A stretch of DNA of 64,000 nt from Novakomyces olei. Taxonomy: Eukaryota > Ascomycota > Novakomycetes > Novakomycetales > Novakomycetaceae. Both the position numbers and the translations under genes were made by a program. Where the stretch lies: contig JADEYG010000003.1 of assembly GCA_016906335.1 (NCBI GenBank), positions 930,001 to 994,000 of the forward strand, written 5' to 3'. Shown here one piece after another: positions 59,735 through 63,193 of the stretch (position 1 is its first letter; each line of letters begins with the position of its first letter). A model generated the notes under the pieces. That model was given only the letters and a program-made list of their open reading frames with translations, did no database searches and was not told where the DNA came from.

Positions 59735-60098
59735 GCTTGTTGGGGCAAGAGTAGTACACAATTGGAATGGCTCTACCGTAACAAATACAAATTGGCAGAC
59801 TGCTGACGCAATGTCAGATAAAAACAGATACAAAGTCGGGCTCAAGAACGAGCGAATGCAAAGTCAATTCGTAAAGACAAAACCATATCGATAATCCAAT
59901 CATTGCCCAATGGCAAACATGTTAAATCTTTCTTAAGTCGCCTTTGCGACTTGATTATTCGTCTATTAATCGGTTAATTAATTTTACTAATTTTTTTATT
60001 TTTACTAATTTTTTATTTTTACTATTATTTAACAATAATAGCTAAATAAATTATTATTTACTGTTCATGTGGCATTTCATAGTACGATTGTTGCTTAT
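59735..60098. other. Intergenic region before the LTR-flanked block
   Basis: Promoter of the JmjC gene followed by T-rich spacer with TACTAATTTTTTATTTT repeats near 59984-60023. No gene is seen. Confidence 0.5.
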
Positions 60099-60411
60099 TG
60101 TTGAAGATAAAAGGTTGGAATTTGTTCTTATGGTAGATTAAATGAATTAGAAACTCTAGATTGCTTTAGCTGAATCCCCCGAGAGTATGAGGGTTCGCTT
60201 GAGCTATATATGTATGTAACTATGTATTTTTGAGTGAGTTTTCTGTAAAGCTAAAAGTCAAACAACTGACACTCATGGTTGGATTGTCTTAACCGGTCAG
60301 TGAGTCGGCAAGTGTATTATTATTATTATTATTATTATTATTATTATTATTATTATTATTATTATTATTATTATTATTATTATAAGGGGATAATAGATTC
60401 ATATTTCAACA
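60099..60411 (+). mobile_element. LTR-like repeat, upstream copy
   Basis: Starts TGTTGAAGATAAAAGGTTGG and ends ATATTTCAACA, closely related to the 51203-51433 copy, with a TTA microsatellite at about 60316-60383. It is preceded by CTTAT (60094-60098). The same five bases follow the downstream copy that ends at 62990, so the two may be the ends of one former element. Non-coding fossil. Confidence 0.65.
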
Positions 60412-60416
60412 CATTA

Positions 60417-60545
60417 ATTCTTGTATTAGTAAATTCTTGTATTAGTAAATTCTTGTATTAGTAAATTCTTGTATTAGTAAGTTCTTGTATTAGTAAATTC
60501 TTGTATTAGTAAGTCCTGTTATCAGTAAGTTCTTGTATTAGTAAG
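60417..60545. repeat. 16-bp tandem repeat, eight copies
   Basis: Units of ATTCTTGTATTAGTAA repeated about eight times directly after the upstream LTR-like copy, with minor variation in the later units. No unique spacers, so not a CRISPR array. Confidence 0.9.
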
Positions 60546-60639
60546 ATCAAGGAGCATGGCTAGCAAGGTTGGCGATCAGATGACAAATGGGCTGGCTGTA
60601 ATTTGCAAAGGCGCAATTTGTCAGCCACAAACTGACTCA

Positions 60640-60649
60640 ATATATAAAG
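60640..60649 (+). promoter_or_regulatory. TATA box of the short-chain dehydrogenase gene
   Basis: ATATATAAAG lies about 80-90 nt before the ATG at 60729. Confidence 0.55.
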
Positions 60650-60728
60650 CCTCATGTACTCTCTATAGCGTATCAAGCAGCACCGAAGCATCAAGAGCAT
60701 CGTCCTAAACAGAACTTTTTAACCTACA

Positions 60729-61466
60729 ATGTCTGCCGATACTGTGTATTTTGTCTCAGGCGCTAACCGTGGTCTTGGTTTGGGATTTGTTAAAGATCTC
60801 GTGGCTAGAACCAATACAACTGTTTTCGCGGGCGTACGTGAGCCCAGCAAGGCTAGCTCAGAGCTTCGCGATCTTGCAGCCAAGTTCAAGAATCTTACAA
60901 TTGTCAAACTGGAGTCTACCAAGCCAGAAGACGCACTGACAGCGATTGAAACTGTCAAAAAGGTTTCAGGAAAGCTTGATGTTGTGATTGCCAATGCCGG
61001 CATTGCGCAGCCAATTCCGAGCCTGGAAGCAATGCCTGTTGAAGCCATCTCGGAACACTACGAAGTGAACGTTGTTGGGCCAGTAGCACTTTTCAAGGCG
61101 GCTCTTCCTCTGCTCAAGAAAAGCAGCAATGCCAAATTCATTGGTGTGTCTACTGTGGCTGCATCGATATCAGACATGTCACTTCCTACAAATGCTTACG
61201 GAGCAAGCAAGGCGGCACTGAACTACTTTCTCAAAGATGCTCATGTTGAGCATCACGAGAAAGATGGCATTACCGTTTACCCTGTGCATCCCGGCTTGGT
61301 GGAGACTGACATGTCTGCCCCTTTTCTTCCAATGGCCATTCAGGCTGGCTTAACTCCTATTAGCGTCACCCAGAGTGCAAATGATCTTTTCAAGCTTATT
61401 GACAGCGATGATAAATCTTTGAGTGGAAAGTTCTGGTCTTACACGGGCGATGAGATTGCTTATTAG
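60729..61466 (+). CDS. Short-chain dehydrogenase/reductase
   Basis: Classical SDR of 245 aa in a single frame. The cofactor loop is SGANRGLGLGF near residue 10. Structural NAG is in VVIANAGIAQ, the catalytic Ser is in GVSTVAASISD, and the Tyr-x3-Lys is in NAYGASKAALNYF, followed by VYPVHPGLVETDMSA. AGVREPSKASSELRDLAAKF after strand 2 gives an Arg at the position that favours NADP(H). It resembles the C-factor/norsolorinic-ketoreductase-like group; the substrate is unknown. The gene is intronless, unlike most neighbours, has more G/C-ending codons than its surroundings, and sits between LTR-like repeats next to a dioxygenase relic. These points make acquisition or duplication of this block plausible. 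Confidence 0.92.
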   Translation: MSADTVYFVSGANRGLGLGFVKDLVARTNTTVFAGVREPSKASSELRDLAAKFKNLTIVKLESTKPEDALTAIETVKKVSGKLDVVIANAGIAQPIPSLEAMPVEAISEHYEVNVVGPVALFKAALPLLKKSSNAKFIGVSTVAASISDMSLPTNAYGASKAALNYFLKDAHVEHHEKDGITVYPVHPGLVETDMSAPFLPMAIQAGLTPISVTQSANDLFKLIDSDDKSLSGKFWSYTGDEIAY

Positions 61467-62375
61467 GCTAAACCATTTTGCCTTTTGAGTTTGGTCTCTT
61501 TTATTATACGATCCAAACCGAGGCACTGGTCTTCGCTGTTTCAAAGTTTTTGCTTTTTTGTTTAATGTCTAGAGTTTTAATTTGAATAATAGTACCAATC
61601 TTGCTTTTTTAAATAAATCACAAATAGCGTTCTAAAATAAATAGTACTTTAGATACTGCGGTATGGACATGTCCAAGATAGAACTGCAAAAGCAGTTCTT
61701 TGGAGTGATGAAAAGGTAGGCTTCAATTGTAGTAAACAAATGACGCAGATAACTTCGAGATATTGTGTACTGGCCAATAAGGGGAAGATTACAGTGGCTA
61801 TAGAAATGCTAGACTGATACTTTCATGCCTATAGGTCAGTTTGAGCCAATTGCCCAAAGAGGTAATCAAGTTTATAACGGAGTTCCTACTTCTGAATGCA
61901 TCATACATACTCTTCACCTCTACAGCTCGTACTTTCTTATCCGCATAGAGACTATTGGGCTTGTCTATCGTACCAAGTGGCCTTGTTGAATTATCTGGTT
62001 GAAAGAGGCGGGTTTAGGTAGCAAATGAATTTATCCGTGTCTCTGGTTTTGCAGGATTTAAAATTGCGTGGGCTGCTTTATTTTTTTGGCGCAAATAGTG
62101 CCCGCGCGAGAGATAGAAGCGCGTTGATCCTACAATACCTATCTTCAATAGTACAAGAGCCGACTTTCAAGCCTATTGCACATGGGCCAGGATCGAAAGC
62201 CAATGTATTGTCTTGAAGAATACCAGTAAAATTGGCATTGTAGTATGGGGCTATGGTCTTTGGTATCGATCTCAATAATGTCGAGTGGGACACGTTTGAG
62301 TTGATAGGAAATGCACTTTATGAGCATAAGTTACTGGTATTCATAGAACAGCCGCACATGCTTATGCTTGAAAAC
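61467..62375. other. Spacer inside the LTR-flanked block
   Basis: About 900 bp downstream of the dehydrogenase. Short frames such as 62025-62216 are open but not recognised. They may be older parts of the dioxygenase relic that follows. Confidence 0.4.
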
Positions 62376-62700
62376 CAATTTTGTTTGACGCACGCGTTTT
62401 GATAGAGAGCGTAGATCACGCGAAAACTCACATGACCAAGTCTCTCAGCGGCAGAACGAGCCGAAGGCAAAACCGATTTTATCAATGGCATTCTGATGGG
62501 GCGCTGTATGACTCGCCTCCGCCAATAGTAGGCTGTTTGCTAGCAATTCAGACACCGAAAGGGCCCGATATCTGTTTCTCGTGGCACAGCGACTACTATA
62601 AAGAGGATTTCAGTATCGATAATGCGCCGTGGTCCACCGCGAGGTCCACCGCGAGTATGTGACCAGAAGAGCAGTGTGTGTTGACTGCAAAACAGTGTTC
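62376..62700 (+). pseudogene. Relic of a TauD/clavaminate-synthase-like dioxygenase
   Basis: The frame at about 62381-62662 encodes RFYQWHSDGALYDSPPPIVG, then CLLAIQTPKGPD, resembling the iron-binding WHxD segment and the following beta strands of fungal TauD/TfdA-like oxygenases. Only about 90 residues are present, with no start region and no second histidine motif (GxxxxHxxR), so this is taken as a decayed fragment rather than a working gene. A tandem GGTCCACCGCGA duplication lies near 62629-62653. Family assignment is from memory of the motif and is moderate. Confidence 0.5.
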
Positions 62701-62732
62701 TCGGGAGCCCAAGAATTTGAGCTGCTAAGTGA

Positions 62733-62990
62733 GTTTTTGAGTGAGTTTTCTGTAAAGCTAAAAGTCAAACAACTGACACTCATGGTTGGATTGTCTTAAC
62801 CGGTCAGTGAGTCGGCGAGTGTATTATTATTATTATTATTATTATTATTATTATTATTATTATTATTATTATTATTATTATTATTATTATTATTATTATT
62901 ATTATTATTATTATTATTATTATTATTATTATTATTATTATTATTATTATTATTATTATTAAAAGAGGATAATAGATTCATATTTCAACA
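62733..62990 (+). mobile_element. LTR-like repeat, downstream partial copy
   Basis: From GAGTTTTCTGTAAAGCTAAA to ATATTTCAACA it matches the 60099-60411 copy almost base for base, with a longer TTA microsatellite (about 62822-62960). The 3' flank CTTAT at 62991-62995 equals the 5' flank of the upstream copy. A partial, non-coding fossil. Confidence 0.65.
62822..62960. repeat. Long TTA microsatellite
   Basis: About 46 uninterrupted TTA units inside the downstream LTR-like copy; the upstream copy has about 22. Confidence 0.97.
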
Positions 62991-63193
62991 CTTATATATA
63001 ATTGCATGGATAATAAATAGGCATTTAGGTATACGTTTACATGTGGGACAGTGCTATTCCATACATTAATGGAATAATAAAAATAATCTACTTGTCCGCC
63101 AACACAAACTACACAACGACGCGTGGCTTTTAAATTCCTGTGCGGCACTGCACTCCATTGGCTCCGGAATTTACTGCCACTGAGCGGATAGCG

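What the first reader, a model, noticed from the sequence alone, without database searches (positions are those of the whole stretch)
60094..62995. A dehydrogenase gene and an oxygenase relic lie between two LTR-like repeats that share one 5-bp flank
Seen: the upstream repeat (60099-60411) is preceded by CTTAT, the downstream partial repeat (to 62990) is followed by CTTAT, and both end ATATTTCAACA. Between them are an intact intronless SDR gene and a dioxygenase fragment; no gag or pol sequence is recognised. If the flanks are a true target duplication, the block behaves as one inserted unit carrying host-type enzyme genes. Chance identity of five A/T-rich bases is perhaps one in a few hundred, so two separate insertions or recombination between copies remain possible.
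Basis: partly seen in the sequence, partly recalled or inferred. Interest (0 to 1): 0.7.

Follow-up and report, generated by a model that had tools for sequence, protein, structure and literature searches.

The report
Subtelomeric gene copy between retrotransposon LTRs
In a small fungal genome, a copy of a chromosome-end gene for a dehydrogenase sits between two leftover ends of a retrotransposon, most likely because DNA repair copied it into an old retrotransposon site rather than because the element carried it there.

Summary
A complete LTR (60099-60411) and a truncated one (62734-62990, LTR nt 129-313) flank an intact SDR gene and a dioxygenase relic, with CTTAT outside both. Five-bp duplications are the rule for this Ty1/copia-type family (13 of 14 scored units). 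The two LTRs share a four-site haplotype found in 0 of 39 other rows, so two unrelated insertions are unlikely. That the block arrived as one LTR-borne unit is only partly supported. The interior has one other listed copy, C4:9957-12457, about 10 kb from a telomere-like end, without LTRs. There the dioxygenase gene continues; in the window it stops at the truncated LTR. The window copy keeps sequence upstream of the SDR gene, a 16-bp array and a 41-nt intron, so it did not come from spliced mRNA. The element's internal edge sequences are absent; no second LTR-SDR-LTR was listed in this genome. Best explanation: an LTR insertion received a DNA-level copy of a subtelomeric segment by ectopic repair. 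A known kind of event (compare S. pombe wtf genes beside Tf LTRs); modest interest.

The parts
60094..60098 (.). CTTAT, left copy of the 5-bp target duplication
   Evidence: 5-bp TSDs in 13 of 14 scored units of the family
60099..60411 (-). LTR1, complete 313-bp LTR of a Ty1/copia-type element; true orientation is minus, because gag-pol ORFs of full elements lie on the strand opposite to this reading
60412..60416 (.). CATTA joint between LTR1 and the repeat array; not the element's internal sequence (CTCCCC...) and not CTTAT
60416..60545 (+). 16-bp tandem array; the exact 15-mer TTCTTGTATTAGTAA occurs 15 times in the genome, 7 here and 8 at C4:9970-10112
60546..60728 (+). Sequence upstream of the SDR gene with a TATA-like TATATAAA at 60641-60648; 13/183 differences from C4
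60729..61466 (+). Intact intronless SDR gene, 245 aa, 98% identical to the C4 copy; 7/738 nt differences
62150..62733 (+). 5' part of a TauD/TfdA-like dioxygenase gene, a relic: 175 nt present at C4 missing, a private stop codon, cut off at LTR2 (left limit approximate)
62655..62695 (+). 41-nt intron (GTATGT...CAG) of the dioxygenase gene, retained here and at C4:12380-12420
   Evidence: without it the two C4 exons align continuously with the paralogue C7:2079345; TauD score rises from 18.4 to 34.4 bits
62734..62990 (-). LTR2, LTR nt 129-313 only; LTR nt 1-128 (its inner side) missing; sister of LTR1
62991..62995 (.). CTTAT, right copy of the target duplication

Best explanation
A Ty1/copia-type element or its solo LTR inserted between a JmjC-domain gene and an Adaptin_N-domain gene (SEC21-like, by recall), duplicating CTTAT (shown: outer flanks; inferred: event). 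Later a DNA copy of a subtelomeric segment (repeat array, SDR gene, start of a dioxygenase gene; related to C4:9957-12457) was written into that LTR site by ectopic repair: non-allelic gene conversion or break-induced copying anchored in the LTR, or integration of a DNA circle at the LTR. It left one complete and one inner-truncated LTR (shown: anatomy and related locus; inferred: order and repair pathway). The SDR copy kept an intact reading frame and probably remains a working second gene copy (inferred); the dioxygenase copy is dead.
For: One other listed copy of the interior, C4:9957-12457, 95% over 2000 and 92% over 333 aligned columns, 10 kb from a telomere-like end; a BLAST of window 55000-64000, both LTRs included, found no LTR in C4:1-20000. 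C4 runs on through the dioxygenase gene; the window copy stops at LTR2. Retained 41-nt intron, upstream sequence and array point to a DNA template. No exact CTCCCC, GATTCAAGGGGAG, AGGCTCATAACC or GGTTATGAGCCT in 60090-63000. LTR1/LTR2 share 4 rare sites. Their 3 differences lie at LTR nt 212 and in the last 29 nt (2, read by eye): 0/83 against 3/35, p 0.025, post hoc, as if the right end of LTR1 came from a second LTR. LTR leader and array share ATTCTTGTATT (7 of 2000 Markov-sampled leaders reach 11). [quoted passage not shown]
Against: No related genome is held, so neither the pre-duplication allele nor a donor with an LTR in the array was seen. LTR1 ends exactly at its inner edge, which is unexplained if the break fell at random in a full-length element. 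The right joint shows no clean overlap: one G is unassigned, and the AGTGA common to block end and LTR lies further into the LTR. Interior divergence (59/1413) and LTR-pair divergence (3/118) do not differ (p 0.62), so the order of events is not dated. An unspliced or antisense RNA template is not excluded.
Confidence: 0.68

Rival explanations
1. Retroposition: the element's machinery reverse-transcribed an unspliced or antisense host RNA into a chimeric LTR-ended cDNA, and integrase inserted it as one unit, making CTTAT.
For: Outer LTR ends and a 5-bp duplication as from integrase. LTR1 ends exactly at its inner edge. The host genes are antisense to the element, so an LTR-driven transcript would not be spliced. 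Ty1 is known to make retrosequences and to mobilise subtelomeric Y' RNA (passages of PMC7175516).
Against: The block holds an array and sequence upstream of the SDR gene that are not expected in the SDR mRNA, keeps its intron, has no poly(A) at the joints, and lacks both sequences that flank the LTRs internally in full elements. One LTR is truncated on its inner side. No second copy listed.
Confidence: 0.13
2. A composite LTR unit with the SDR and dioxygenase genes once moved as cargo and was later truncated.
For: TSD and sister LTRs.
Against: No other LTR-SDR-LTR listed; the only other SDR block is LTR-free. The 6 other LTR pairs read here hold copia-type coding sequence (5 by Pfam or tblastn; the sixth, L018, by ORF beginnings equal to L019's), and the four longer ones also Ty3/gypsy pol; no host enzyme was recognised in them, but not every ORF was scanned.
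Confidence: 0.1
3. Two independent LTR insertions happened to fall either side of an SDR locus, and CTTAT is chance.
For: A 5-mer match by chance is 0.1-0.6%; solo LTRs of the family are common.
Against: Shared four-site haplotype in 0 of 39 others; LTR1 alone lacks a TSD; the gene copy is cut at the LTR joint.
Confidence: 0.04
4. Assembly error joined subtelomeric sequence to the C3 locus.
For: LTRs and microsatellites are places where assemblies can fail (general knowledge; no tool result).
Against: The two interior copies differ by about 4% outside the SDR gene, with private lesions in each, so one is not a stray copy of the other.
Confidence: 0.05

Closest known systems
[quoted passage not shown]
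   Same: A host gene flanked by LTRs or other dispersed repeats, introns kept, no evidence that the unit is a mobile element; the route proposed for the 5S cases is ectopic conversion or circle integration at a pre-existing repeat.
   Different: A metabolic SDR gene, not a meiotic driver; one duplicate, not a family; here the target duplication and a source-like locus can be read.
Ty1-dependent retrosequences and Y'-Ty1 mobilisation in S. cerevisiae (PMC7175516 passages; three primary papers cited there were not held)
   Same: Subtelomeric sequence joined to LTR-element sequence at a new site.
   Different: Those arise from RNA; this block keeps an intron, upstream sequence and array.
Ty1/copia elements (Pseudoviridae) with half-tRNA priming such as copia and Ty5 (this comparison is recalled)
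   Same: Integrase before reverse transcriptase, 5-bp TSD, TG...CA ends, and an inner edge sequence that looks like an anticodon stem-loop with CAT.
   Different: The window block has LTRs only.

Membership tests
Ty1/copia LTR retrotransposon (family of the LTRs) | Full-length relatives with integrase upstream of reverse transcriptase (RVT_2) | tested here: met
   L026:2617-6204 minus: rve 214-310, RVT_2 718-956; L019 in two ORFs
Ty1/copia LTR retrotransposon (family of the LTRs) | 5-bp target duplication | tested here: met
   13 of 14 scored units; CTTAT around the block
Ty1/copia LTR retrotransposon (family of the LTRs) | Primer site complementary to a tRNA next to the 5' LTR | tested here: inconclusive
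   CAGGCTCATAACCTG occurs 21 times in the genome, 8 beside LTRs and 13 elsewhere, the latter possibly tRNA-Met genes, not checked; a recalled S. cerevisiae form gave only 3 matches, each with 3 mismatches, as many as the reversed control
LTR-borne mobile unit with host cargo | Two complete LTRs with the internal edge sequences | tested here: not met
   LTR2 lacks LTR nt 1-128; no exact CTCCCC, GATTCAAGGGGAG, AGGCTCATAACC or GGTTATGAGCCT in 60090-63000
LTR-borne mobile unit with host cargo | More than one copy with different target duplications | tested here: not met
   One copy listed in this genome; relatives not held
Retrosequence / processed gene copy | Introns absent, poly(A), no sequence upstream of the transcript | tested here: not met
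   41-nt intron retained at 62655-62695; upstream sequence and array present; no poly(A) at the joints
Repeat-anchored ectopic duplication (wtf-like) | Relative with the lone repeat and no gene at the syntenic site | not testable with these tools
   No related genome held; 0 matches to the joined-flank pattern in the own genome with up to 3 mismatches
SDR superfamily | Nucleotide-binding motif and YxxxK (motifs recalled) | tested here: met
   SGANRGLG and YGASK in the translation; adh_short E 7.5e-31; best PDB match 7ypd, carbonyl reductase, E 3.9e-41

The most novel reading that the evidence does not exclude
A copia-type element captured an unspliced or antisense RNA of a subtelomeric gene pair, and its integrase inserted the chimera as one unit with CTTAT, so that LTR elements of this fungus can carry intact subtelomeric enzyme genes to internal chromosome sites.
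Probability: 0.12. Interest if true: 0.6.

Novelty: new member of a known kind. Interest (0 to 1): 0.3.

Why it matters
It shows, with a readable source-like locus, target duplication and joints, how an old LTR site can take up a subtelomeric gene. The SDR reading frame has then stayed intact: 7/738 differences against 59/1413 in the rest of the block outside the array (p 1.6e-5), so at least one copy, and perhaps both, is under constraint. That is a small case of LTR-assisted spread of a metabolic gene from a chromosome end, not a new kind of mobile element.

Tried and rejected
Two independent insertions: rejected by the shared LTR haplotype. Cargo of a transposing unit: disfavoured by the missing internal edge sequences, the truncated LTR2 and the single listed copy. 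Capture of a strong-stop cDNA that would leave only the 3' part of an LTR (an early idea of mine): dropped when the pol ORFs showed that the element reads on the minus strand, so that LTR2 lacks the 3' part of the LTR in the element's own orientation. Processed gene copy: rejected by the intron. Empty site: 0 matches to the joined flanks in the own genome with up to 3 mismatches, and each flank was listed once only. Organism: not identified; searches for the telomere unit as TTAGTTAGGG and GGGTTAGTTA gave 1 unrelated paper and 0 papers. tRNA primer by a recalled sequence: no good match. Paper searches for related cases (listings only, apart from passages of PMC7175516 and PMC9562144) gave the wtf and Ty1 retrosequence literature; I do not claim that a case like this one is absent from print.

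Full report
WHAT IS THERE. The window is G000:C3:930001-994000 of a 14.34-Mb, 15-contig genome. Contig C4 begins with a (CTAACCCTAA)n telomere-like repeat, and genes here appear to have short introns (44 nt inferred in the SEC21-like gene at 63222-63265). I take it for a small fungus; it was not identified. The described coordinates are right. LTR1 (60099-60411) is complete; LTR2 (62734-62990) is LTR nt 129-313. CTTAT stands outside both. LTR1 is followed by CATTA, so LTR1 alone has no target duplication.

THE LTR FAMILY. 65 matches to LTR1 were listed, a lower bound (40 of 53 candidates scored). Full-length relatives have gag and a pol with integrase before RVT_2 on the strand opposite to the window reading, so the element is Ty1/copia-type and the LTRs here point to the minus strand. 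In full elements the LTR edge that corresponds to 60411 is followed by CTCCCCTTGAATC..., and the other inner edge is preceded by AGGCTCATAACC. I infer polypurine tract and primer site. The tRNA link rests on 13 of 21 genome matches of CAGGCTCATAACCTG lying away from the LTRs and was not checked further. None of these edge sequences occurs exactly in 60090-63000. Among 39 other LTR rows, 14 units made of 20 rows could be scored for flanks, and 13 have an exact 5-bp duplication; 19 rows were not scored.

ONE LTR EVENT. LTR1 and LTR2 differ at 1 of 89 positions in nt 129-217 and share the haplotype T142-G184-A185-A194, found in 0 of 39 other rows; the other rows differ from LTR2 at 4 or more positions, apart from L016 with 2 of only 50 comparable ones. 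Two further differences lie in the last 29 nt (read by eye). With the 5-bp flanks this speaks for one LTR insertion, not two.

WHERE THE INSIDE CAME FROM. The interior has one other match listed in the genome, C4:9957-12457 (95% over 2000 aligned columns, 92% over 333). It lies about 10 kb from the telomere-like end, and a BLAST with both LTRs in the query found no LTR in C4:1-20000. Alignment is continuous from inside the 16-bp array to GCTAAGTGA at the LTR2 joint, where C4 goes on with the dioxygenase gene and the window goes on with LTR. The window copy is therefore the derived, cut one. The array 15-mer occurs only at these two places (15 exact matches, 7 and 8). The dioxygenase gene has a 41-nt GTATGT...CAG intron. 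Without it the C4 exons align continuously with a paralogue on C7 (131 bits, 30% identity), and TauD rises from 18.4 bits for the second piece to 34.4 bits. The intron is present in the window copy at 62655-62695. With the upstream sequence and the array this excludes a spliced mRNA as template. Both copies of the dioxygenase gene look broken: they share a stop in the same frame near the 5' end (which counts only if coding starts before it), C4 has a private 1-nt frame shift, and the window copy has a private stop and lacks 175 nt.

THE SDR GENE. 245 aa, adh_short E 7.5e-31, nearest solved structure a carbonyl reductase, 7ypd, E 3.9e-41. It differs from the C4 gene at 7 of 738 nt (4 amino-acid and 3 silent changes) against 59 of 1413 in the rest of the block outside the array (p 1.6e-5). 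Non-synonymous sites against that sequence p 1.4e-5; silent sites p 0.15, not significant. So the protein has been under constraint in at least one copy, and an intact frame in the window copy suggests that it is used. Gene conversion between copies could also lower divergence. A third, 56% identical SDR is at C12:1329621.

HOW IT AROSE. Shown: outer duplication, sister LTRs, subtelomeric relative, retained intron, missing internal edge sequences, truncated LTR2. Inferred: an LTR insertion existed at C3 and a subtelomeric segment was copied into it by ectopic repair. Three routes fit. (a) Repair that left C3 through LTR-LTR homology to a donor with an LTR in the array, and returned into LTR nt 129; it predicts differences only at the right end of LTR1, as seen (0/83 against 3/35, p 0.025, post hoc and weak). 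The return joint has one unassigned G and no clean overlap; AGTGA is common to the block end and to the LTR a little further on, which would need slippage. No such donor was seen. (b) Integration of a DNA circle at the LTR. (c) Replacement of the inside of a full element; here the ATTCTTGTATT common to leader and array (7 of 2000 Markov-sampled leaders reach 11) may have helped, but the exact edge of LTR1 is unexplained. I cannot choose among them.

COMPARISON. S. pombe wtf genes lie beside Tf LTRs and show no evidence of being mobile elements (passages of PMC7175516). [quoted passage not shown] This looks like the same kind of event with a metabolic gene. Ty1 retrosequences, including subtelomeric Y' RNA (passages of PMC7175516), are the RNA-level alternative that the intron speaks against.

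OTHER LTR PAIRS. Six other same-strand pairs were read (C12:430395-435774, C1:106398-111722, C12:1362227-1374488, C7:838270-850564, C7:139866-157900, C5:9323-27868). Five contain copia pol by Pfam or tblastn; the sixth, on C12 at 430 kb, has ORFs that begin like those of the C1 element. The four longer ones also contain Ty3/gypsy pol. No host enzyme gene was recognised between them, although not every ORF was scanned. A possible seventh pair on C13 was not counted because the start of its left LTR is ambiguous; copia- and gypsy-like sequence lies there too. In what was read, the window pair is the only one around host enzyme genes.

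Noticed in passing
51203-51433: An older, diverged LTR of the same family (TGCTGAAGAT..., 89% to LTR1 over its first part) lies in the same window.
   Followed up: partly
L026+L027 (C12:1360001-1378000), L032+L033 (C7:836001-854000), L020+L056+L025 (C7:137501-163000), L034+L057+L035 (C5:6001-31000): Copia-type elements of 12-18 kb between exact 5-bp duplications contain Ty3/gypsy-type pol ORFs, one with a chromodomain (L034); on C5 two gypsy-type copies lie in inverted orientation.
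   Followed up: partly
L026:7832-8341, L020:7939-8448, L033:2935-3399: A cysteine-rich ORF (CEYC...CMVC or CGYC...CLAC) recurs beside the gypsy-type pol ORFs; no Pfam match in the two copies scanned (L026, L033).
   Followed up: partly
L027 and L031: The right-hand LTR on the 30-kb contig C13 has the same outer flank (taatgtatggag) as that on C12; C13 may be a duplicate or second haplotype of part of C12.
   Followed up: no
L023 (C2:633001-641000): Two LTRs in inverted orientation less than 1 kb apart, with rearranged LTR and leader pieces between them.
   Followed up: no
60316-60382 and 62823-62961: The (ATT)n microsatellite inside the LTR varies in length between copies: about 22 units in LTR1, about 46 in LTR2.
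   Followed up: no
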